The notes below the pieces were generated by a model. The model did not search any database. It was not told the DNA's origin and saw nothing but the letters and a program-made list of their open reading frames with translations. 64,000 bases of DNA from Fibrobacter sp. UWB10 (GTDB taxonomy: Bacteria; Fibrobacterota; Fibrobacteria; Fibrobacterales; Fibrobacteraceae): positions 620,001-684,000 of the forward strand of contig NZ_FXUE01000002.1 in NCBI RefSeq assembly GCF_900182935.1. The letters are read 5' to 3'. Of this stretch, positions 10,394 through 40,192 are shown in pieces. The translations under genes were made by a program, and so were the position numbers. Position 1 is the stretch's first letter. The number at the start of each line of letters is the position of its first letter.

Positions 10394-11905
10394 ATGAAAT
10401 GTGAAATGTGGAATGTGAGATGTGGAGTGGCTTCTCTCGTTTTGGCGGCCTCTCTTGCAACATTGGCTCCGCTCTCTTACGCTCAGCAGAATGCCGATAT
10501 CGATGCCGTGAAGCAGCGTGCCGCGTTAAACAGCGCGAAGGCTGATTTGGAAGAAGCTCGCAAAAAGCGTGACATGGCCGTTGCTGCTCGCTGGAAGGAC
10601 CGCGAAACGGCCAACCAGGAACGCGAACTCTTTAATGAAAAGTATAACGAAAGCAAGGAAAAGGTCGACGCCTTGATGTCGGAACGTGCACGTCTGTTCG
10701 AAGATGTGCGCGTTGCTCGCGAAGACTTGGCTCAGGTGAAGCTGCAGGCCGAAAAGGCTCGCGCCGAATACTTGTCGCTGGCTGCTGGCCCTGAACGCTT
10801 GGAAACGCTTGCGAAGTTCAGCGAACAGGGAATTCCGTTCAAGATTGCTGAACGTGTCGAAGTGCAGAACAAGGTCAAAAAGGAAATGGGCTTGTACAGG
10901 GACGATCCCTTGCGCATTGCTCAAGCAGTTCTGAATGCAGCCAAGAATGAAATGGAATTCTCTCGCGAAGTCCAGGTAGAAAATGCCGAACTTGTTTTCG
11001 GAAACGCAGTGGCACAAGGTGGTCGCATGCGCCTGGGCGGACTTTACGCGATGCAGATGGCTAACGCTGTCGATATCAACGGCTTGCATCCGGCTGCTTT
11101 GATGCTCCCGGTGGCTGGCGAAAAGAAGCGCGTGTTCAGCTGGCAAGAAAACTTGACTCCCGATACCAAGTCTGAAATCAGCAAGGCTTTTGTCGAATCG
11201 AAGGATTCCGCCTACGTGATGGTACCGGTCGATGTACTCTTGAGTACAGAACTTTCGTCTGAAATGGCGAACCACCAGGAAACCACCTGGAAAGACGACT
11301 TGAGGGAATTCTTTAAGAACGGTGGTCTTTTGATGTACCCGCTGTCTGTGCTCTTTGCGCTGGGTCTTTTGATTGCCTTGTGGCGCTTTGTGTGGCTCTC
11401 TTATAGGGGCTTTGGTTCTATTGCCGCACACCGTGTGATTAAGGCTCTGAAGGCGGGCGATATCGAATCTGCTCGCAAGCTTGCCGTAAAGACTCACGGC
11501 GAAGTCGGTCGCGTGCTCAAGACGGTGCTGACCAAGAATTACAAGGACCGCGAAAGTGCAGAACGCGCCCTCGAAGAACTTTTCTCTGCTGAAGTTCCCA
11601 AGCTGGATTTTGGTCTGAACTGGATTTCTGTGTTTGCGGCTGTGGCTCCGTTGCTTGGCCTTTTGGGTACGGTGATGGGAATGATTGAACTTTTCGACGT
11701 GATTACCATGCACGGTACCTCTGACCCGAAACTTTTGGCAGGCGGTATTTCGATTGCTCTTGTCACGACGGAAACGGGTTTGATTGTTGCCATTCCGTTG
11801 CAGCTGATTCACACGTTCCTGGTGAACCGTTCTGAAGCCTTGCGCGGTCGCATGGAAAAGGCCGGTCTTGCCGTGTTGAATGCTCTTTGGATTAAGGAAA
11901 AGTAG
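10394..11905 (+). CDS. exbB: ExbB/TolQ-type stator protein with periplasmic coiled-coil extension (TtpC-like)
   Basis: The 503-residue protein has a signal-like N-terminus (cleavage after SYA, about residue 30), a predicted periplasmic coiled coil (about residues 35-135), a globular segment, and a C-terminal MotA/TolQ/ExbB domain. That domain has three membrane helices: GGLLMYPLSVLFALGLL, VAPLLGLLGTVMGMI and ISIALVTTETGLIVAIPL. It forms part of the proton-driven motor that powers TonB. The first codons are embedded in a TGTG/ATGTG-rich repeat like that at 40197. Its stop overlaps the next gene's GTG by one base. Confidence 0.88.
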   Translation: MKCEMWNVRCGVASLVLAASLATLAPLSYAQQNADIDAVKQRAALNSAKADLEEARKKRDMAVAARWKDRETANQERELFNEKYNESKEKVDALMSERARLFEDVRVAREDLAQVKLQAEKARAEYLSLAAGPERLETLAKFSEQGIPFKIAERVEVQNKVKKEMGLYRDDPLRIAQAVLNAAKNEMEFSREVQVENAELVFGNAVAQGGRMRLGGLYAMQMANAVDINGLHPAALMLPVAGEKKRVFSWQENLTPDTKSEISKAFVESKDSAYVMVPVDVLLSTELSSEMANHQETTWKDDLREFFKNGGLLMYPLSVLFALGLLIALWRFVWLSYRGFGSIAAHRVIKALKAGDIESARKLAVKTHGEVGRVLKTVLTKNYKDRESAERALEELFSAEVPKLDFGLNWISVFAAVAPLLGLLGTVMGMIELFDVITMHGTSDPKLLAGGISIALVTTETGLIVAIPLQLIHTFLVNRSEALRGRMEKAGLAVLNALWIKEK

Positions 11906-12567
11906 TGCCTGCAGTAGACCAAAATTCCGTACTTGAAGCGGCAATGGCCATTCTCTTTAGAGGTGGCTGGGTGCTTGCCCCGATCTTTGTGTTGGGGTGG
12001 TTCGGTTGGTTTTTAATGCTCGAACGCTACGCCTACTACTTTATGCTTCGCGGCGGTACCGTGAACGGCGTGGTGGGTGGATTCTGGAAGAATCTCGAAA
12101 AGAAGGGCGAAGATTTCGCTTTTGAAAAACTTTCGCACCACCGGTTCGGATATTTCTATGCGCTTGCCCGTGATGTCCGCAATTATCGCGACCAAGGGCC
12201 TACTGCGGTCCGCAACGCCATGGAAGAAACGCGCCACCGTATATCGCTCAATTTGTCTAGATCGCTCAAGACGATTTCGACATGCGCCGCTCTTTCTCCG
12301 ATGCTTGGCTTGTTGGGTACGGTTTCGGGCATGGTTCACACATTTGAAAACATTAAGCTTTTCGGTTTCGGAAACCCGGTGCTTTTTGCCGATGGTATTT
12401 CTGAAGCTTTGCTCACGACGCAGGCGGGACTTTTGATGTCGTTCCCGCTGATGCTTGCCTATAACTTCTTGGCAGGCCGTGTCGAAAAAATCGAGGAACT
12501 GGCCTGGAGCGAAGCGCTCAAGTACGAAAGCTACGTTTTTAAAGAAGGAAAGTTTGAGGTCAAATAA
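11905..12567 (+). CDS. exbB: ExbB/TolQ-type proton-channel protein
   Basis: The 220-residue protein begins at a GTG that overlaps the previous stop by one base. Three membrane helices are visible (VLAPIFVLGWFGWFLML; TCAALSPMLGLLGTVSGM; LLTTQAGLLMSFPLMLAYN), the conserved ExbB/TolQ arrangement. With ExbD it makes the inner-membrane proton channel that energises TonB. Two ExbB-type proteins in one operon, one with a periplasmic extension, is the known TtpC-ExbB-ExbD-TonB arrangement. Its stop overlaps the exbD ATG by one base. Confidence 0.93.
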   Translation: MPAVDQNSVLEAAMAILFRGGWVLAPIFVLGWFGWFLMLERYAYYFMLRGGTVNGVVGGFWKNLEKKGEDFAFEKLSHHRFGYFYALARDVRNYRDQGPTAVRNAMEETRHRISLNLSRSLKTISTCAALSPMLGLLGTVSGMVHTFENIKLFGFGNPVLFADGISEALLTTQAGLLMSFPLMLAYNFLAGRVEKIEELAWSEALKYESYVFKEGKFEVK

Positions 12568-12971
12568 TGAGTTTTATTCGTAAAAGAGTTCATGATACAG
12601 GAAAGATTGACGTGTCGCCGATGCTCGACTGCGTCTTTATCCTGCTTATCTTCTTTATTGTGACGTCGACTTTCACGCGCGAAACGGGCGTTGACGTTAC
12701 CAAGCCCAAGGCCAGTTCTGCAAAGGATTTGGCCAAGGAAAGCATTTTGATTGGCGTGACTCGCCAGGGTACGATTCACATTAACGAAACCCAGGTGAAT
12801 CTGACGACTTTGAATACGGTGCTCCGCCAGATGATGGCTGAAGCGCCTGACCGCCCGGTGATTATCGTGAGCGATCGCGATGCCCCTAACGGTGTCGTTG
12901 TCGATATTCTCGATGAATGCAACCTCGCCAAGGTCCGCAAAGTTTCTATCTCGGCGAATAAGGAAGAATAG
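12567..12971 (+). CDS. exbD: ExbD/TolR biopolymer transport protein
   Basis: The 134-residue protein has the single N-terminal membrane helix of ExbD/TolR with the essential proton-carrying Asp at residue 21 (SPMLDCVFILLIFF) and a periplasmic domain of about 95 residues (ILIGVTRQGTIHINE, PVIIVSDRDAPNGVVVDILD). It is the partner of the ExbB-type proteins upstream; proton flow through the complex drives conformational change in TonB. The start overlaps the exbB stop by one base. Confidence 0.95.
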   Translation: MSFIRKRVHDTGKIDVSPMLDCVFILLIFFIVTSTFTRETGVDVTKPKASSAKDLAKESILIGVTRQGTIHINETQVNLTTLNTVLRQMMAEAPDRPVIIVSDRDAPNGVVVDILDECNLAKVRKVSISANKEE

Positions 12972-24162: not shown

Positions 24163-24993
24163 ATGAATTTCTTTAAGTTTTTTGCGAGCGCTAGCGCTCT
24201 TTTTGCCCTGTGTGCCTGTGATGGTAATGAGTTCGTTCTTACGTTCAACACCCAGAACGCTCCCCAGCAGACATATTTCCTTGAATCTTCTTTGAATGCA
24301 ATCTTGCCGACGACGGATTCCGTGTCTGGAACGCCCGAAGCAATGAATACGCATCTCAGTGTTCGTGCGACCAATTCTCTTTTGACCGCTTACGACGATG
24401 GTTCTGCCAAGTTCCAGCTTAAAATTGACTCGGTAGACTACAAGTCTGATAAGCGTACGGTCGAAGAATTCAGCAGCATGGAACGCTACATGTCCACCGA
24501 ACATTTCCAGTTCAAGATGGCTAAAGATGGCGATATTCGCGATGCTGTTATCGAAGACTCCGTGATGCTCGGAACCGAGGCTCTGGATTTGATTCGCATT
24601 TTCCTCAAAGTCCAGCCGCTTTTGCCGGGCAAACCGGTCAAACTGGGCGAAACTTGGGACCGTCAGGTCGAAATTCCGGGTACATCTAAAAAGACGGTGG
24701 TGTACAAGTCCTTTACGCTCGAAGACCATTATGTTCATGATGGTGTCCAGATGGCCAAGATTGGCATGAACATCAAGTACAAGGAACTTGCTGATTCGAC
24801 CTCTGACTTGCGCATGGAAAGCAAAGGCTTTATCGTGGGTACGGGTACAATCCTGTTCGACATGACGCATGGTGCTATTTCGAATGTGAAAATGGAATTG
24901 ACTGGCGACCTGAGTGTAAACGATATTGTTGCCGACAACGTGATTCCCGATATGCATGTGATTCAGAAAATCAAGCTGAGGAGTGAATTTTGA
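24163..24993 (+). CDS. Hypothetical lipoprotein, first gene of the stator operon
   Basis: The 276-residue protein has a lipoprotein signal (MNFFKFFASASALFALCAC; lipobox LCAC, Cys near 19). The mature part is beta-rich with even charge (FQLKIDSVDYKSD, GFIVGTGTILFDM, NVKMELTGDLSV) and resembles periplasmic beta-sandwich lipoproteins, but I cannot name the family. It overlaps the next start by 4 bp (TTGA), which ties it to the downstream operon. No Shine-Dalgarno; TATATTCT lies just upstream. Confidence 0.75.
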   Translation: MNFFKFFASASALFALCACDGNEFVLTFNTQNAPQQTYFLESSLNAILPTTDSVSGTPEAMNTHLSVRATNSLLTAYDDGSAKFQLKIDSVDYKSDKRTVEEFSSMERYMSTEHFQFKMAKDGDIRDAVIEDSVMLGTEALDLIRIFLKVQPLLPGKPVKLGETWDRQVEIPGTSKKTVVYKSFTLEDHYVHDGVQMAKIGMNIKYKELADSTSDLRMESKGFIVGTGTILFDMTHGAISNVKMELTGDLSVNDIVADNVIPDMHVIQKIKLRSEF

Positions 24994-25715
24994 TTTTAGA
25001 CTTTAAGAAATGGTCAGGACTTGCCTTAGCGACGTTCTTATTTGTTGGTGCCGCGGTTGCGGGGGAGATGCCTTTCCCGCCGATTGAAAATGGCAAGGTA
25101 AAACTAGTGGTGGCGGATAGCCCTTATTTGCTGGAACAGGGTGCTGTTTTTTCGGCAAAGGATACCTTGGAAATTGAACCGGGTGTAACGGTCTTGATGG
25201 GCGAATATGCAAAGCTCATGTTCCGTGGCTCCGTCAAAATTATCGGTACCGACGCTGCTCCCGTGGTGTTCAAGAGCGCTGATTCGCTCAAGAGCTGGAA
25301 CGGTCTTCATTTTGTGTCGGCGAACAAGCCGTTTGAAATCAAGAACCTGGTTGTTGAAAATGCATTCCGCAATACGGTGTTCCGCTCTAAGGGCATTTTC
25401 GAAAACGTGAAGTTCGTGAACAACTACTACGGCCTTTGGATTGACGATGTGCCCGAAGTATTCCTTGCTCGTTGCGAATTCGTGCGCAACCGCTTTGCCC
25501 TTTCGATTCGCGCCGGCCAGGTGGTGTCTGCCGATACCAAGATCAGCGACAACGTTTATGGCCTTTACCTGGAACCGGGTGGAAAGTTCGATGGCGACAA
25601 GAGCTTGATTAAGGATAATCTTGAAGCCGATGTGCGTAACGAAGCCGAAGAACTTGCCGCACAGGGCAAGCGCGTGAACAGGAATATCTGGCACCGTATC
25701 GAAACCTCTTTCTAA
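24990..25715 (+). CDS. Exported right-handed beta-helix-like protein
   Basis: The TTG start is preceded by GAGGAG at good spacing and overlaps the upstream stop. The 241-residue protein has a signal peptide (cleavage after AVAG, about residue 25) and then repeated short strands typical of parallel beta-helix proteins (IEPGVTVLMGEYAKLMFRG, GIFENVKFVNNYYGLWIDD, VFLARCEFVRNRFALSI, TKISDNVYGLYLE). Likely periplasmic or surface exposed; ligand unknown. It lies 10 bp before the cytosolic gene of the stator cluster. Confidence 0.72.
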   Translation: MILDFKKWSGLALATFLFVGAAVAGEMPFPPIENGKVKLVVADSPYLLEQGAVFSAKDTLEIEPGVTVLMGEYAKLMFRGSVKIIGTDAAPVVFKSADSLKSWNGLHFVSANKPFEIKNLVVENAFRNTVFRSKGIFENVKFVNNYYGLWIDDVPEVFLARCEFVRNRFALSIRAGQVVSADTKISDNVYGLYLEPGGKFDGDKSLIKDNLEADVRNEAEELAAQGKRVNRNIWHRIETSF

Positions 25716-25725
25716 GGAATCTTTA

Positions 25726-26634
25726 GTGCAAGAGTCGTTCCGCAGATCCATTCGCAAGATGACGGATAGTAGCGTCCGTCTTTCGGTGCGACCGAATCGC
25801 TCCACCATGATGGCGACGCTTTCGCAGTCGATGATGGTGACTTGGTCGATTGTGTTGCACGAACACTTGGATGCCATGCTGAACGATCCGGCGGTAAATG
25901 TCGGTACGACAGAACTGATTTCTTTTAGCGAAACCGCTTGGAAATTGGCCGATTCCAGTTTCCCGCAGATTGTGGCTGATGCCAACAAGCTTTACGATGA
26001 ATTTCGCACCAAGTGGATGCAGCGTTTTTCGACAGACGAAGTGATGCGCCTGCTTCTGGAAGGCGGAGACTTCTTGCATCACGACGAAGAAAAGGGCTGG
26101 GCGCTGACGGTCAAGAACAACAAGCAAGACATTAATGCTTTTTATTCCGCGACGATTCACTTGCTGGTGAGCGACGCCGAACCGTTGTTCGTCCGCATGC
26201 ACGGCCGCGTCATGCAGTTGCAGGAAAAGTTGTGCAAGTATTGGCATTCCGAAAGCGCCGTGGATGCGGTTTCCAAACTGCTCCCCAGTTTGGAAGCGTC
26301 GCTCCGCGATAAGGAAAACGCCTTGGTCGTTTCGCTCCGTAGCTCGCTGAATGCTTTGGCAAAGAAACGTTTTGCGGCTGCTTTCAATACCAAGAATCCG
26401 CCGCACTACTACAGCTCGGCTGCTTCTTGCGCACGTAATGTGGGCCGTTACTGGAATCCGCATTATGCTTATGAAAACGGATTCCTCGCCTTTACTGATG
26501 ACTTTTGTGATTACGCCCGCGGGCTTACCCTTCAGATTATTGAATGGTACCAGAGCAAGTGGGCTCTGTTTTTGCGCGGTTTCTCGCGCGGTCAATTGAA
26601 TTTGTTTGAAACAACGGGCCCTTCGAGGTCCTAA
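25726..26634 (+). CDS. Unrecognised cytosolic protein upstream of the MotA-like gene
   Basis: The GTG start has AAGGAA upstream. The 302-residue protein has no signal peptide or membrane helix. Its N-terminus is basic (MQESFRRSIRKMTDSSVRLS), the rest mostly helical with many aromatic residues (FLHHDEEKGWAL, YYSSAASCARNVGRYWNPHY, IIEWYQSKWALFLRGF). I see no nuclease, helicase, ATPase or kinase motif. Position 16 bp before the stator gene suggests a cytosolic partner of the motor. Confidence 0.7.
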   Translation: MQESFRRSIRKMTDSSVRLSVRPNRSTMMATLSQSMMVTWSIVLHEHLDAMLNDPAVNVGTTELISFSETAWKLADSSFPQIVADANKLYDEFRTKWMQRFSTDEVMRLLLEGGDFLHHDEEKGWALTVKNNKQDINAFYSATIHLLVSDAEPLFVRMHGRVMQLQEKLCKYWHSESAVDAVSKLLPSLEASLRDKENALVVSLRSSLNALAKKRFAAAFNTKNPPHYYSSAASCARNVGRYWNPHYAYENGFLAFTDDFCDYARGLTLQIIEWYQSKWALFLRGFSRGQLNLFETTGPSRS

Positions 26635-26650
26635 AAGATGCAGGTATGAA

Positions 26651-28396
26651 ATGAAAAATGCATTCCAAATCATTTTAGCGCTTACCATTGTGGGACTCCT
26701 TGCCTTGGTGATTGCCGCCTTCTATTTTGGCGCACCGCTCTTTGGCTGGGTTATTATGGCTGCTATTTTTGCCGTGTTTATCGGAGAACAACTTGTTGCC
26801 CTCAAGACGGTAAAGCAGATTGCTGCTGAAACGGAAATTCTGGAAACCTGCGAAAAGCGTGGTGGCTATGTGGCTGGCGATGGCGTTGTCGCAAAGCGTG
26901 TCGCTCTTGCTCGTAACCTGATTGCTAAAAATATTCGCCTTGATTCTTCGATGGCCTACGAAGTCCTTTCGAACAGCGTTCAAATTGCTGTTCCGAAGAG
27001 TGCTGGTGGTACGGTGATTCTCCTTGGCCTTATGGGTACGTTCTTTGGCCTTATGTATTCTGTGGCAACGGCCGGCGGTGCAATCGACAATTCGACAACG
27101 CAGGGTACGCTCGATACCATTCAGCTTTTGTTCCTGAACATGAAGGGTATTTTCGGCACGAGCCTTTGCGGTTTGTTCGCCGCTTTGATTTTGAACGCTA
27201 GCCGCAACATGATGGTGTCTGCCCGCGATACTTTTGTGGCTCGCCTTGATGCTTTGACTCTCGACTTGCAGGGTGCTGCAAATGGCGAAAGCGAAGAAGC
27301 CCAGGCTCAGACGGAACTGGAACGCCTGTTCGATTCTGTCGAAAAGAATTTGGCCGTTGTGGCATCTTCTGTAAAGGACGGCCTTTCCGGCGTTGTGTCC
27401 ATGGTGGGCGACGAACTTTCTGCCATGACATCTAAGCTCAATGATTCGCTTGCCAACGTTTCTCAGAACATGAACAAGGCTGTCGAAAACTTGGGCCCCT
27501 CTGTCAAGGATTCTCTGTCGGGCGCATTCACTCCGATGGAACAGAACATCAAGACGCTTTCTGCTTCTGTGGAATCGATTCCGGGTAAGCTCGACGAAAA
27601 GTTGAACGGTATTTCTACGACGCTCAAGAGCTCTCTCGAAGGCGTGTCTGGAAACGTCGAAACGGCTCTTGCCAAGGTGGCATCCGATGTGAAGGCTGGC
27701 CTCGATGGCGTTGCTTCTGCAACGGAATCGGCTATGAATGATTCTACGAAGAATATCGCTGCTGCTGTGGCCGATCAGGTCAAACAGTCCGACGAACAGT
27801 GGAAATCTTTCATGGAACGCCTTTCTGCCGAAACGCTCAAAAATGTGGACAGCCAGAAAGAAGGCCTCGAAACGCTCAAGAATGTGGCTTTGCAGGTGGC
27901 CGAAAAGGCTCAGGCCGGTTCTGCCGAACTCAGCAATTCCGTGGCCGAAAAACTCTCTGCTCTCTCTTCGGATATTCTCGGCGCATTCCAGAAACTTTCC
28001 GAAACTTCTGCCGTGCTGCTTGAAGCCCAGAAGGCTCTTACCGAAAGTATCGACAACCGCGTGGTCAAGGAAAAAGAAGCAACCGACGCCTTGGGCGGAA
28101 ACATTGTGGAAACCGCAGAACTTATGCGCGTGAACCAGTCCGAACTCAGCGCAAACCTCGAAATGCTTCGCGCAGGCCTCGAAACGATTCTCGAAAAGCT
28201 CTCTGGCGATACCGCCGAACGCGACGACGAAGAAAACTTTGTGGAGCACCTCAACCAGTCTCTGGAAGCCTTCCACGAACGCGCAAGCGAAGTGCTTATG
28301 GAAAATGCGGTCAAGACGCAGGAAATTTTGCTCGAAGTCTTGGAACAGACGCAACGTTCTTCCATTCAGCAGCATAAATCCGATGTTGAGGGCTAA
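26651..28396 (+). CDS. MotA/TolQ/ExbB-family stator protein with long coiled-coil tail (ZorA-like architecture)
   Basis: The 581-residue protein has about four membrane helices in the first 190 residues: two N-terminal (IILALTIVGLLALVIAAFYF; GWVIMAAIFAVFIGE) and two with the MotA/ExbB signature (GGTVILLGLMGTFFGLMYSV; GIFGTSLCGLFAALIL). Residues 200-560 are a long alpha-helical region with heptad-like and repeated VKDGLSGV / LEGVSGNVE elements, predicted coiled coil in the cytosol. This matches ZorA: stator plus long cytosolic tail. The partner is the OmpA-type gene 2 bp downstream. Confidence 0.87.
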   Translation: MKNAFQIILALTIVGLLALVIAAFYFGAPLFGWVIMAAIFAVFIGEQLVALKTVKQIAAETEILETCEKRGGYVAGDGVVAKRVALARNLIAKNIRLDSSMAYEVLSNSVQIAVPKSAGGTVILLGLMGTFFGLMYSVATAGGAIDNSTTQGTLDTIQLLFLNMKGIFGTSLCGLFAALILNASRNMMVSARDTFVARLDALTLDLQGAANGESEEAQAQTELERLFDSVEKNLAVVASSVKDGLSGVVSMVGDELSAMTSKLNDSLANVSQNMNKAVENLGPSVKDSLSGAFTPMEQNIKTLSASVESIPGKLDEKLNGISTTLKSSLEGVSGNVETALAKVASDVKAGLDGVASATESAMNDSTKNIAAAVADQVKQSDEQWKSFMERLSAETLKNVDSQKEGLETLKNVALQVAEKAQAGSAELSNSVAEKLSALSSDILGAFQKLSETSAVLLEAQKALTESIDNRVVKEKEATDALGGNIVETAELMRVNQSELSANLEMLRAGLETILEKLSGDTAERDDEENFVEHLNQSLEAFHERASEVLMENAVKTQEILLEVLEQTQRSSIQQHKSDVEG

Positions 28397-28398
28397 GC

Positions 28399-29037
28399 AT
28401 GCGCTTTAAGAAAGACGAAAACAGCAATCCTTGGATGGCGTACACGGACTTGGGTGTTGCCCTGGTTTCGTTGTTCATCCTTGCGTTTGTGGCGATGGCT
28501 ACCCTTAAGGAACAGAAGGCCGAAGACCTTACCCGTACTGAAGAAGAAGTGCTCAGCTGTCAGGAACAGATGCGTAAAATTGCGGCCGAACGCAACGCGC
28601 TTTTGTCCAAGAGCTTGCAGACTTCTATTGAAGCGGGCCTTATCGCTCTCGAAGACGGTAAAATTCAGATTCAGGCCAGTTTCCTTTTCCCGATTAACGG
28701 TGCCGACCTTACCAAAGAAGGCGAAGGCGTGATTCGTGGTATTAGCAAGGGCCTTTTGGAAGCTCTTGATTCTACCGACGTGATTATGGTGAGCGGATTT
28801 ACCGATGATACTCCGGTGAAGTCCAAGACTTACACCAACTGGAATCTTTCTACCGAACGCGCGGTGAACGTGGTCAAGACTTTGATTGCGCAAGGGTTTC
28901 CGCCTGATAGACTTTTTGCCGCAGGCTTTGGCGAACATATGCCCAAGTATCCTAACGACAGCGAAGAACATCGCCGTTTGAATCGTCGCGTGGAAATCGG
29001 TGTAACGCCGCTTCAGAAAACGGGTAAAGAAAACTAA
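28399..29037 (+). CDS. MotB/ZorB-like stator protein with OmpA peptidoglycan-binding domain
   Basis: The 212-residue protein has one membrane helix near the N-terminus with an Asp at residue 17 (AYTDLGVALVSLFILAF), the position of the proton-carrying Asp in MotB/ZorB/TolR proteins. An OmpA/MotB domain follows (about residues 90-205: VSGFTDDTPVKSKTYTNWNLSTERA, DRLFAAGFGE, RRLNRRVEIG), which anchors to peptidoglycan. Together with the upstream protein it should form a proton-driven motor. A GAGG site overlaps the previous stop. Confidence 0.9.
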   Translation: MRFKKDENSNPWMAYTDLGVALVSLFILAFVAMATLKEQKAEDLTRTEEEVLSCQEQMRKIAAERNALLSKSLQTSIEAGLIALEDGKIQIQASFLFPINGADLTKEGEGVIRGISKGLLEALDSTDVIMVSGFTDDTPVKSKTYTNWNLSTERAVNVVKTLIAQGFPPDRLFAAGFGEHMPKYPNDSEEHRRLNRRVEIGVTPLQKTGKEN

Positions 29038-29694
29038 ATGCAGGAACGCTTAGAAACATTACGTACAGGGATTGATGCTATCCGCAAGAGCGGAAAGCTG
29101 CCTCATTGGCGTATGGTCTATGCCGAAAACCTGCTGAACCGTGCTGGAGAATACTTGGCTGTCGACAGGCTCCCGGAAGCGGGCATGGTGGCCGATAAAT
29201 TGGAACGCTGGATCAAGACGCATACTCCGCGTGTCGATTCTTCGGAACGATTTGCGGATAATCCGATGGTCTTCTGGAATGCGGACATGCTTATGGCGAT
29301 GTCTGCGAAGTTGAAACAGACACTTTTGGAAAAACGCCAGCTTGTCCCGGGCACGGAACGTGAATCGATTGTACGTCGCTTGACGCTTGTGGAAGGTTGG
29401 ATTCGCGAGGGCCAACTGTTGCAGGCTCACGAGGAACTCTTGTCGCTTAGAACGGCGCTTATTGCTCGCTTAAGGCGTAGCTTGCGTGCACGCTTGGTGG
29501 CAACAGACCTTTATCGTGGAACGGCTTCGGTGCCGGCTGGGAGCCTGGTGGGCCCCTATAATGCTTTGCATACGCTCGAAGAAACATTCCATGTGGTGGG
29601 CGAGCGTGACCCGATTTGGATTGAAGACTTCCTTGAAATCTATAATGACTTGTTTCGCGTGGTAGAACGCCTCGTTCCTCAAGACAAAAAGTGA
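29038..29694 (+). CDS. Unrecognised cytosolic protein, last gene of the stator operon
   Basis: The 218-residue protein starts immediately after the previous stop. It is helical, with no signal peptide or membrane helix, and has TPR-like helical hairpins in the first 130 residues (AENLLNRAGEYLAVDRLPEAGMVADKLERWI). It ends in an acidic/aromatic helix (DPIWIEDFLEIYNDLFRVVERLV). No catalytic motif is recognised. Operon position suggests it binds or regulates the motor tail. Confidence 0.7.
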   Translation: MQERLETLRTGIDAIRKSGKLPHWRMVYAENLLNRAGEYLAVDRLPEAGMVADKLERWIKTHTPRVDSSERFADNPMVFWNADMLMAMSAKLKQTLLEKRQLVPGTERESIVRRLTLVEGWIREGQLLQAHEELLSLRTALIARLRRSLRARLVATDLYRGTASVPAGSLVGPYNALHTLEETFHVVGERDPIWIEDFLEIYNDLFRVVERLVPQDKK

Positions 29695-29730: not shown

Positions 29731-29765
29731 AAAAAGAACTCCCGAAGGAGTTCTTTTAAATTTTA
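29731..29765. terminator. Bidirectional rho-independent terminator
   Basis: The stem GAACTCC / GGAGTTC with a CGAA loop is flanked by A5 on the left and T4 on the right. It sits between convergent transcripts. Confidence 0.88.
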
Positions 29766-37651: not shown

Positions 37652-40192
37652 ATGTCTGATATCAACGGTATTTTTTCGAAGAAAGCGAAGGCTGTTTTAC
37701 AGGCGGCACGCATTGCTGCCCGTAATTTAGGTAGCGATAGTGTTACGACCGAACATTTGCTGCTCGGCCTGGTACGCGAAGATTCCGGCTTTGCCGCCGA
37801 AACCTTGCGTGCGCTTAAGATCAATTTGAATGAACTTGGCGAAAATGTGCAGCGCTCGCTGACCACAAATGGTGGCATTATGACCGTGGGCGATGCCCAT
37901 GGTGCGTTGCTCTCTTTTACGACTCGTTGTAAGGCTGCTCTTTTTAATGCGGCAAAGATTGCTAAAGAAGAAGGGGACCAGTATATTGGCCCCGAACACT
38001 TGATGCTTGCCATTTTGCAGCAGGCTGAATCTCCGGCTGCAGGCACTCTTTCGACCTTTGGCGTAACCTACGAAAATTTTGAAAACACCTTGCAGCAGAT
38101 CAAGCGCGAGGCCATGAATGGTCAGCCCTCTGGCGAAGAAGGCGATGGCATGGACGGCGATGACCGCTTTATGGGACAGGGCCGCGGTGGCGATACCCGC
38201 CAGCAGGTGCGTAGCCAGAGTCGTTCCAAGACGCCGATTCTCGATCACTTTGGTCGCGACTTGACGGCGCTTGCCAAGCAGGGTAAGCTTGATCCGATTA
38301 TCGGTCGCGGTCGCGAAATTGAACGTTTGATTCAGATTCTTTGCCGCCGCAAAAAGAATAACCCCGCCCTCATTGGTGAACCGGGCGTGGGCAAGACGGC
38401 GATTATTGAAGGCCTTGCTCAGAAGATTGTCCAGAAGAAGATTCCGGAACTCTTGATGAACAAGCGCGTAGTCACGCTTGATGTGGCTGCTATGGTGGCA
38501 GGCACTAAGTACCGTGGCCAGTTCGAAGAACGCGTGAAGGGCCTGATTATGGAACTCCAGCGCGTGGACAATTCGGTGATTCTCTTTATCGATGAATTGC
38601 ATACGATTGTGGGCGCGGGCGGTTCCGAGGGTAGCCTTGATGCCAGCAATATCTTTAAGCCGGCGCTCGCCCGAGGCGAACTCCAGTGCATTGGAGCCAC
38701 GACGATCGATGAATACCGCAAGTACATCGAAAAAGATGCCGCACTTGAACGCCGTTTCCAGACGATTGTCGTGAATCCGCCTAATTCCGAAGATTCTATC
38801 CAGATTTTGGAAGGGCTGCGCCCGAAGTACGAGCAACACCATAAGGTGCATTACACGCCCGAAGCCATTCGAGCTGCGGTGACGCTTGCCGAACGCTACA
38901 TTACCGACCGATTCCTGCCGGACAAAGCTATCGACGTGCTTGACGAAGCCGGTGCCCGCGTGCGTTTGAATTCGATTCGTACGCCGCAAGACCTTAAGGA
39001 AATGGAAGACGAACTTGCCGCGACCATGCAAAAGAAGGAAGAGGCCATTGCCGATCAGCAGTATGAAACGGCAGCCACTCTCCGCGACAAGATTGAAGAT
39101 TTGACGAACCGCATCGCTGAACGCCGCGAAGCCTTGAATAAAGAAGACTCTGCGGATTTCCCGATTGTTGATGAAAACGAAATTCGCGATTGCATCAGCA
39201 AGATGACGGGTATCCCCGTCAGTCGCCTCGCTGGTGAAGAAACGCAGAAGCTCCTGAAGCTCGGCGACGAAATCAAGGAACGCGTGATTGGCCAGGACCA
39301 GGCTGTAGACGCCGTGGTGAAAGCCATTCGCCGTACTCGCGCAGGCATTCGCGATACTAAGCGCCCCATGGGTAGCTTCTTGTTCCTCGGTCCCACAGGT
39401 GTCGGTAAGACGGAACTGGCGAAGGTTCTCAGTCAGAGCCTGTTCGGCAGCGAAGATTCCATGATCCGTATCGACATGAGCGAATACATGGAAAAGCACA
39501 GCGTGAGCCGCTTGATCGGTGCGCCTCCGGGATACGTAGGCTTCGAAGATAACGGTGGCCAGCTCAGCGAAAAGGTGCGTAAGCGCCCCTACTGCGTGGT
39601 GCTTCTCGACGAAATCGAGAAGGCTCATCCGGACATTTACAACTTGCTCTTGCAGATTTTGGACGACGGTATCCTTACGGATAGCTACGGCCGCAAAATC
39701 AACTTCAAGAATACGATAATCATCATGACGAGTAACGCAGGCGCTCGCGAAGTGCGCCACAGCAGCGGCATGGGATTCACCAAGATGGGCGAGACCGACG
39801 ACTACGAACGTATGGAAACGGCTATCCGCGAAGAAGTCAAGCGAGTGTTCTCTCCGGAATTCTTGAACCGTGTGGACGAGCAGATTGTGTTCCGTCCGCT
39901 GACCAAGAAGGATCTCTCTTCTGTCGTAGACATTCAGCTGACCTTCTTGCAGAAGAACTTGTCTGAACGCGGAATCCTTCTGGAAGTTTCCGAAGCCGCC
40001 AAGGAATTCATCGTTTCGCACAACTACGATTCTGCACTCGGCGCGCGCCCGATTCGCCGCTCCATTCAGAACCTGGTCGAAGACGAAATTGCCGAAGGCC
40101 TGTTGCTTGGAATCTACAAGGACTTCACGACAATTTCGATTGATGTCGAAAACAACAAGCTCAAGTTCACATCCGAGGCGTTACCAAGCTAG
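37652..40192 (+). CDS. clpC: ClpC-type AAA+ unfoldase
   Basis: The 846-residue protein has a Clp_N repeat domain (residues 1-150), a first AAA+ (GEPGVGKTA), a UVR-type M domain (EEAIADQQYETAATLRDKIEDL) and a second AAA+ (GPTGVGKTE, MTGIPVSRL before it). The MGF tripeptide in HSSGMGFTKMG is the ClpP-docking loop. It unfolds substrates for ClpP in the cytosol. GGAG precedes the ATG. clpP is not in this window. Confidence 0.96.
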   Translation: MSDINGIFSKKAKAVLQAARIAARNLGSDSVTTEHLLLGLVREDSGFAAETLRALKINLNELGENVQRSLTTNGGIMTVGDAHGALLSFTTRCKAALFNAAKIAKEEGDQYIGPEHLMLAILQQAESPAAGTLSTFGVTYENFENTLQQIKREAMNGQPSGEEGDGMDGDDRFMGQGRGGDTRQQVRSQSRSKTPILDHFGRDLTALAKQGKLDPIIGRGREIERLIQILCRRKKNNPALIGEPGVGKTAIIEGLAQKIVQKKIPELLMNKRVVTLDVAAMVAGTKYRGQFEERVKGLIMELQRVDNSVILFIDELHTIVGAGGSEGSLDASNIFKPALARGELQCIGATTIDEYRKYIEKDAALERRFQTIVVNPPNSEDSIQILEGLRPKYEQHHKVHYTPEAIRAAVTLAERYITDRFLPDKAIDVLDEAGARVRLNSIRTPQDLKEMEDELAATMQKKEEAIADQQYETAATLRDKIEDLTNRIAERREALNKEDSADFPIVDENEIRDCISKMTGIPVSRLAGEETQKLLKLGDEIKERVIGQDQAVDAVVKAIRRTRAGIRDTKRPMGSFLFLGPTGVGKTELAKVLSQSLFGSEDSMIRIDMSEYMEKHSVSRLIGAPPGYVGFEDNGGQLSEKVRKRPYCVVLLDEIEKAHPDIYNLLLQILDDGILTDSYGRKINFKNTIIIMTSNAGAREVRHSSGMGFTKMGETDDYERMETAIREEVKRVFSPEFLNRVDEQIVFRPLTKKDLSSVVDIQLTFLQKNLSERGILLEVSEAAKEFIVSHNYDSALGARPIRRSIQNLVEDEIAEGLLLGIYKDFTTISIDVENNKLKFTSEALPS

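What the first reader, a model, noticed from the sequence alone, without database searches (positions are those of the whole stretch)
24163..29694. Operon for a ZorAB-like proton motor with two unknown cytosolic partners
Gene 26651-28396 has a MotA/ExbB membrane core and about 360 residues of coiled coil, gene 28399-29037 has the stator Asp and an OmpA domain; this is the ZorA/ZorB architecture. They are flanked at 16, 2 and 0 bp by two helical cytosolic proteins (302 and 218 aa) in which I see no nuclease, helicase or ATPase motif, and preceded by a lipoprotein and a beta-helix protein. The known Zorya effectors (ZorC, ZorD, ZorE) are absent. It may be a new envelope motor rather than phage defence. 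The cytosolic partners could bind the tail.
Basis: partly seen in the sequence, partly recalled or inferred. Interest (0 to 1): 0.82.

Follow-up and report, generated by a model that had tools for sequence, protein, structure and literature searches.

The report
Core Zorya III-like complex, motor optional
Rumen Fibrobacter bacteria and their relatives carry a distant version of the type III Zorya anti-phage machine as ordinary core genes, and in many relatives the rotary motor is missing while its tail tip and two soluble partner proteins remain, so those parts and not the motor look like the working core.

Summary
The genes are real and placed as described. ZorA and ZorB match the PADLOC models of TYPE III Zorya best (ZorB3 147 bits against 71 for ZorB1). 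The gene order here, 302 aa - ZorA - ZorB - 218 aa, is that of Burkholderiales type III loci (ZorF-ZorA-ZorB-ZorG). No family model recognises the two partners, but profile-profile tests give remote homology: 218 aa to ZorG P=5e-4, 302 aa to ZorF P=0.014, each above all 150 column-shuffled controls.

Two things are unexpected. (1) The operon is core: syntenic across the family, and the 302-aa family is in every genome of the class that is at least 90% complete, except one. No defence genes were found among the neighbours scanned. (2) In 25 genomes of six genera the motor is absent, yet 302 aa, the last ~85 residues of the ZorA tail, and 218 aa persist side by side. Whole-genome searches of 18 of them found no such motor elsewhere. 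Within Fibrobacter the tail tip is the most constrained part of ZorA.

So the conserved unit is tail tip plus partners. Phage defence or envelope role is not shown; I favour an envelope-tethered core function.

The parts
24163..24993 (+). DUF6263-like lipoprotein (276 aa), just upstream of the operon core; a relative also sits beside the motor-less loci of family f4, genus g14
24990..25715 (+). beta-helix protein (241 aa) with signal sequence; conserved at this place in most Fibrobacteraceae genera, not found beyond
25726..26634 (+). ZorF-like cytosolic all-helical protein (302 aa, GTG start)
   Evidence: profile vs ZorF P=0.014, 0/150 shuffles reach it; AlphaFold pLDDT 81.5; omega 0.069
26651..28396 (+). 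ZorA-like stator/rotor protein (581 aa): MotA-type core, coiled-coil tail, conserved tail tip
   Evidence: ZorA3 1.1e-12; core vs ZorA3 core 1.1e-8
26651..27295 (+). ZorA residues 1-215, ion-motor membrane core; absent in motor-less relatives
27296..28120 (+). ZorA residues 216-490, variable tail spacer (omega 0.21); in relatives replaced by other coils or by PKIEIP-type proline repeats
28121..28375 (+). ZorA residues 491-575, conserved tail tip (omega 0.08), presumed docking site of the two soluble partners
28399..29037 (+). ZorB-like protein (212 aa): TM with ion-carrying Asp17 and OmpA peptidoglycan-binding domain
   Evidence: ZorB3 1.2e-43, PF00691 5e-16, D17 invariant
29038..29694 (+). 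ZorG-like cytosolic helical protein (218 aa) with C-terminal GPYN...GERDPIWxEDFLELY motif
   Evidence: profile vs ZorG P=4.6e-4, 0/150 shuffles reach it; motif region poorly ordered in the model alone
29551..29652 (+). GPYN motif region of the 218-aa protein, aligned to the GPLN motif of DUF2894
29732..29757 (+). intrinsic terminator-like hairpin at the operon end

Best explanation
A divergent, vertically inherited relative of type III Zorya (order F-A-B-G). By family knowledge, five ZorA and two ZorB form an ion-driven rotary unit in the inner membrane, held to peptidoglycan by the OmpA domains of ZorB, with a bundled ZorA tail reaching into the cytosol (inferred from the architecture, not shown here). 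The last ~85 residues of the tail are the docking site for the F- and G-like proteins; the GPYN region of G, poorly ordered in the model alone, may fold on binding (inferred). Tail tip, F and G are the conserved working unit; membrane anchor, spacer and motor are exchangeable, since several lineages have a plain membrane tether in place of the motor (the distribution is shown, the binding inferred). Most likely role: a constitutive envelope-tethered complex that reports or acts on envelope state, with the motor as an added energy or sensing input. Use as an anti-phage system, as for type III Zorya, is possible but not required by the evidence.
For: ZorA3/ZorB3 are the best PADLOC models. Gene order matches the annotated Burkholderiales loci. 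Core profile 1.1e-8; G/ZorG 4.6e-4 and F/ZorF 0.014, both 0/150 shuffles; tip/tip 0.059, 1/150; mismatched pairs 7/150. Class-wide presence and family synteny. Motor-less trios and no such motor elsewhere in those genomes. Tip omega 0.08 against 0.17 for the motor and 0.21 for the spacer. No PADLOC hit for seven of ten flanking genes; hits of the other three are weak or look like housekeeping AAA/LolE-type genes.
Against: No Pfam, PADLOC or NCBIfam model recognises F or G, so their link to ZorF/ZorG rests on remote scores, and the tail-tip link to ZorA3 is marginal. No interaction, rotation or phenotype was measured. Type III Zorya from Stenotrophomonas does protect E. coli from phage (PMC8565338). 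That the motor was lost rather than gained is uncertain: forcing all motor-less F proteins into one clade is not rejected (p-AU 0.17).
Confidence: 0.58

Rival explanations
1. A working anti-phage Zorya type III system that happens to be fixed in the class. Infection disturbs the envelope, ZorAB senses it, and F and G carry out or relay the response through the tail.
For: Homology and identical gene order to type III Zorya, which lowers phage plaquing in E. coli (PMC8565338); tail, ion flow and peptidoglycan binding are needed in types I and II (PMC11890865).
Against: Present in nearly every genome of the class, syntenic across the family, low dN/dS, no defence genes found nearby; motor absent in many lineages with F and G kept.
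Confidence: 0.25
2. F and G are unrelated to ZorF and ZorG; a type III ZorAB motor was recruited by a Fibrobacteria-specific tether complex, and the similar operon order is chance or convergence.
For: No family model hits; F-ZorF P only 0.014; motor-less forms dominate outside the order.
Against: Both cognate pairs beat all 150 shuffles and the mismatched pairs do not; same order and same position of each gene; the shared GP[LY]N motif lies in the same C-terminal place.
Confidence: 0.13
3. A Tol/Exb or flagellar-type stator with unrelated neighbours.
For: General MotB/OmpA resemblance of ZorB.
Against: MotA_ExbB not detected in ZorA; ZorB3 far ahead of ZorB1; partner is OmpA-type, not ExbD/TolR-type; tail tip and partners conserved together.
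Confidence: 0.04

Closest known systems
Zorya type III (ZorF DUF3348 - ZorA - ZorB - ZorG DUF2894), Payne et al. 2021, PMC8565338
   Same: Four genes in the same order; ZorA core and ZorB match its models best; remote profile similarity of F to ZorF and of G to ZorG; GP[LY]N motif at the same place.
   Different: Partners are not recognised by any family model; core and syntenic in a bacterial class outside Pseudomonadota; upstream lipoprotein and beta-helix genes; motor-less versions exist.
Zorya types I and II (ZorABCD, ZorABE), PMC11890865
   Same: ZorA5B2-type motor with long tail and peptidoglycan-binding ZorB.
   Different: No ZorC, ZorD or ZorE partner; ZorB scores half as high with the ZorB1 models.
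MotAB / TolQR / ExbBD stators
   Same: General ion-driven stator design with Asp in the B subunit.
   Different: Cytosolic tail of about 360 residues, tail-tip module and two soluble partners; no flagellar or Ton/Tol partner genes in the operon.

Membership tests
Zorya type III | ZorA: MotA-like core plus long cytosolic tail | tested here: met
   ZorA3 1.1e-12; core profile vs Burkholderiales ZorA 1.1e-8
Zorya type III | ZorB of the type III kind with TM Asp and OmpA domain | tested here: met
   ZorB3 147 bits against 71 for ZorB1; Asp17 invariant in Fibrobacteraceae, f2 and Burkholderiales copies
Zorya type III | ZorF recognised as DUF3348 (family model) | tested here: not met
   no hit in PADLOC, Pfam or NCBIfam; none in 28 relatives
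Zorya type III | ZorF homology by profile comparison | tested here: inconclusive
   P=0.014 over 189 columns, 0/150 shuffles reach it
Zorya type III | ZorG recognised as DUF2894 (family model) | tested here: not met
Zorya type III | ZorG homology by profile comparison | tested here: met
   P=4.6e-4, 0/150 shuffles, motif aligned; 154 collinear columns with the Fibrobacterales-only profile
Zorya type III | gene order F-A-B-G | tested here: met
Zorya type III | protects against phage | not testable with these tools
   needs an experiment
Zorya types I and II | ZorC/ZorD or ZorE present | tested here: not met
   no such model hits the operon genes
TolQR/ExbBD | MotA_ExbB family core with ExbD/TolR partner | tested here: not met
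   no PF01618 match for ZorA; partner has an OmpA domain

The most novel reading that the evidence does not exclude
ZorF, ZorG and the ZorA tail tip form an ancient envelope-tethered complex with a core cellular role; the rotary motor is an optional add-on, and type III Zorya is either a defence offshoot of it or partly misread as dedicated defence.
Probability: 0.35. Interest if true: 0.82.

Novelty: new variant of a known kind. Interest (0 to 1): 0.62.

Why it matters
How Zorya motors pass a signal to their soluble partners is open, and I found no study of what ZorF and ZorG do. Natural motor-less versions show which parts evolution keeps together (tail tip, F, G) and which it drops (ion channel, ZorB), giving a small complex that can be purified and tested. 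A Zorya-like system that is core and vertically inherited in a bacterial class also challenges the habit of reading every Zorya gene set as mobile phage defence.

Tried and rejected
Pfam, PADLOC and NCBIfam scans of F and G, and Pfam scans of 28 members of each family: nothing consistent. Foldseek against PDB with both models: no match at E<=0.001. VIA-align: F resembles dynamin-stalk and designed helical bundles (Z up to 11.3, rmsd 4.2 over 191 residues), G small three-helix bundles (Z up to 9.7, rmsd 2.3 over 75); both lie in the range of common helical arrangements, so no function is drawn from them. One genome-contig scan gave only Fibrobacteraceae loci, but its patterns were tuned to that family. 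A scan with the class-wide F alignment was not possible, nor were searches centred on other phyla. Motor loss inside the order: the F tree and the family placement say so, but the AU test does not exclude one motor-less clade. Kept TM1-TM2 hairpin in the motor-less f4 proteins: suggestive only (2/100 shuffles as good).

Full report
WHAT IS THERE. The six ORFs are present as described. The operon ends at a hairpin with T-rich tail, 29732-29757. The window lies in the 3.48-Mb genome G000; a MAG of the same species with an identical operon is named Fibrobacter succinogenes in its record. Median dN/dS between Fibrobacter species: F 0.07, ZorA 0.18, ZorB 0.08, G 0.12, against 0.03-0.07 for the neighbouring housekeeping genes tadA, hemL and the radical-SAM gene.

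WHICH MOTOR. PADLOC models: ZorA3 1.1e-12 and ZorB3 1.2e-43 (147 bits), ahead of ZorB1 (71 bits). The membrane core of ZorA aligns with Burkholderiales type III ZorA cores at 1.1e-8, including the LGTFxG and FGTSxxG segments; the ZorB aspartate is invariant in 65 Fibrobacteraceae copies. The general MotA_ExbB model does not find this ZorA. So this is a type III Zorya motor, not a Tol/Exb one.

THE TWO PARTNERS. Type III Zorya has ZorF (DUF3348) and ZorG (DUF2894) instead (PMC8565338, PMC11890865). Burkholderiales type III loci have the order DUF3348 - ZorA (annotated DUF802) - OmpA - DUF2894, the same order as here. No family model recognises the 302-aa or 218-aa protein, and Pfam finds nothing consistent in 28 members of each family. 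Profile-profile comparison with 13 Burkholderiales loci gives: 218 aa vs ZorG P=4.6e-4, centred on GPYN/GPLN and the following helix; 302 aa vs ZorF P=0.014 over 189 columns; tail tip vs ZorA3 tail tip P=0.059. Column-shuffled controls reach the observed score in 0/150, 0/150 and 1/150 cases; mismatched pairs in 7/150 each. I take these as remote homologues, firmly for G, probably for F, and call the system type-III-Zorya-like rather than a certified member.

DISTRIBUTION. ZorB has orthologues in nearly all Fibrobacter species and in other genera of the family and order. A profile of the 302-aa family finds it in 119 of 168 genomes of the phylum; by the listed rows, every genome of the class that is at least 90% complete has it except G165, and no match is listed outside the class. 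In Fibrobacteraceae the block tadA - lipoprotein - beta-helix - F - ZorA - ZorB - G is syntenic across genera, with single exceptions for the beta-helix gene or for tadA. Ten flanking genes gave no convincing defence hit. This is the pattern of a core gene set, not of a mobile defence island. The annotated Burkholderiales type III loci I read also sit among metabolic genes.

MOTOR-LESS VERSIONS. In two genera of the same family (g2, g4) and in families f3, f4 and f5 the F-like and G-like genes flank a different middle gene: one or two TM segments near the N-terminus, then either a coiled coil or, in g2/g4, proline-rich PKIEIP-type repeats, and then the same tail tip; no ZorB lies there. By presence of the F-like gene and absence of a close ZorB, 25 genomes of six genera belong here; 17 of the loci were read in detail. 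Whole-genome searches with the ZorA-core profile gave 1.6e-67 or better in the motor-bearing genomes tested (except G042, whose ZorA is cut by a contig end) and nothing better than 6e-6 in 19 without (18 with the trio, plus G165); the ZorB profile gave 5e-92 or better against 3e-27 or weaker. So the motor is absent from these genomes, not moved. Within Fibrobacter the tail tip is the most constrained part of ZorA: omega 0.08, motor 0.17, spacer 0.21. The F tree nests g2/g4 inside the motor-bearing order (95/85) and needs two changes of state, but a single motor-less clade is not rejected (p-AU 0.17).

FOLDS. F: all-helical, pLDDT 81.5. G: helical, pLDDT 74.6, with the conserved GPYN region poorly predicted alone, as could be expected for a part that folds on a partner (inference). 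No enzyme fold was found; dynamin-stalk-like and three-helix-bundle hits are within the range of common helical arrangements.

MECHANISM. Shown: co-conservation of tip, F and G with and without the motor; conserved ion-path Asp and peptidoglycan-binding domain where the motor exists. Inferred: tip-F-G binding; a ZorA5B2 assembly as in types I and II (PMC11890865); signal or force passing along the tail. Since the trio persists without a motor, the motor is probably a regulatory or energising input and not the source of the basic activity. Core inheritance favours an envelope-linked core role; the phage protection shown for a type III Zorya in E. coli (PMC8565338) keeps defence open.

NOVELTY. 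The kind is known (type III Zorya). New here, as far as I could find in the literature held: a divergent, class-wide core version outside Pseudomonadota, and motor-less forms that single out tip plus F plus G.

Noticed in passing
window 10394-12971: Two adjacent MotA_ExbB genes (Pfam hits at 11507-11857 and 12184-12495), a separate Ton/Tol-type energiser cluster about 14 kb upstream; it is not part of the ZorAB operon.
   Followed up: no
L057 8311-8991; L084 698-1375: Another ZorB1/MotB-like gene of about 225 aa, with genes of about 265-271 aa nearby, in G044 and G165; similar hits in f3/f4 genomes. A different, unexamined motor family in the phylum.
   Followed up: partly
L066 6519-7061 and L065, L067-L069: In genera g2/g4 the tail spacer is replaced by proline-rich repeats of the type PKIEIPKIE, an unusual spacer of varying length between a membrane anchor and the tail tip.
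   Followed up: partly
L058, L059, L060, L061, L063, L154: Annotated Burkholderiales type III Zorya loci on megaplasmids lie among transport and metabolic genes with no obvious defence neighbours.
   Followed up: no
window 37652-40192: 846-aa AAA protein, probably a ClpB-type chaperone; its PADLOC hits (PDC-M37B, DolB) look like shared AAA domains.
   Followed up: no
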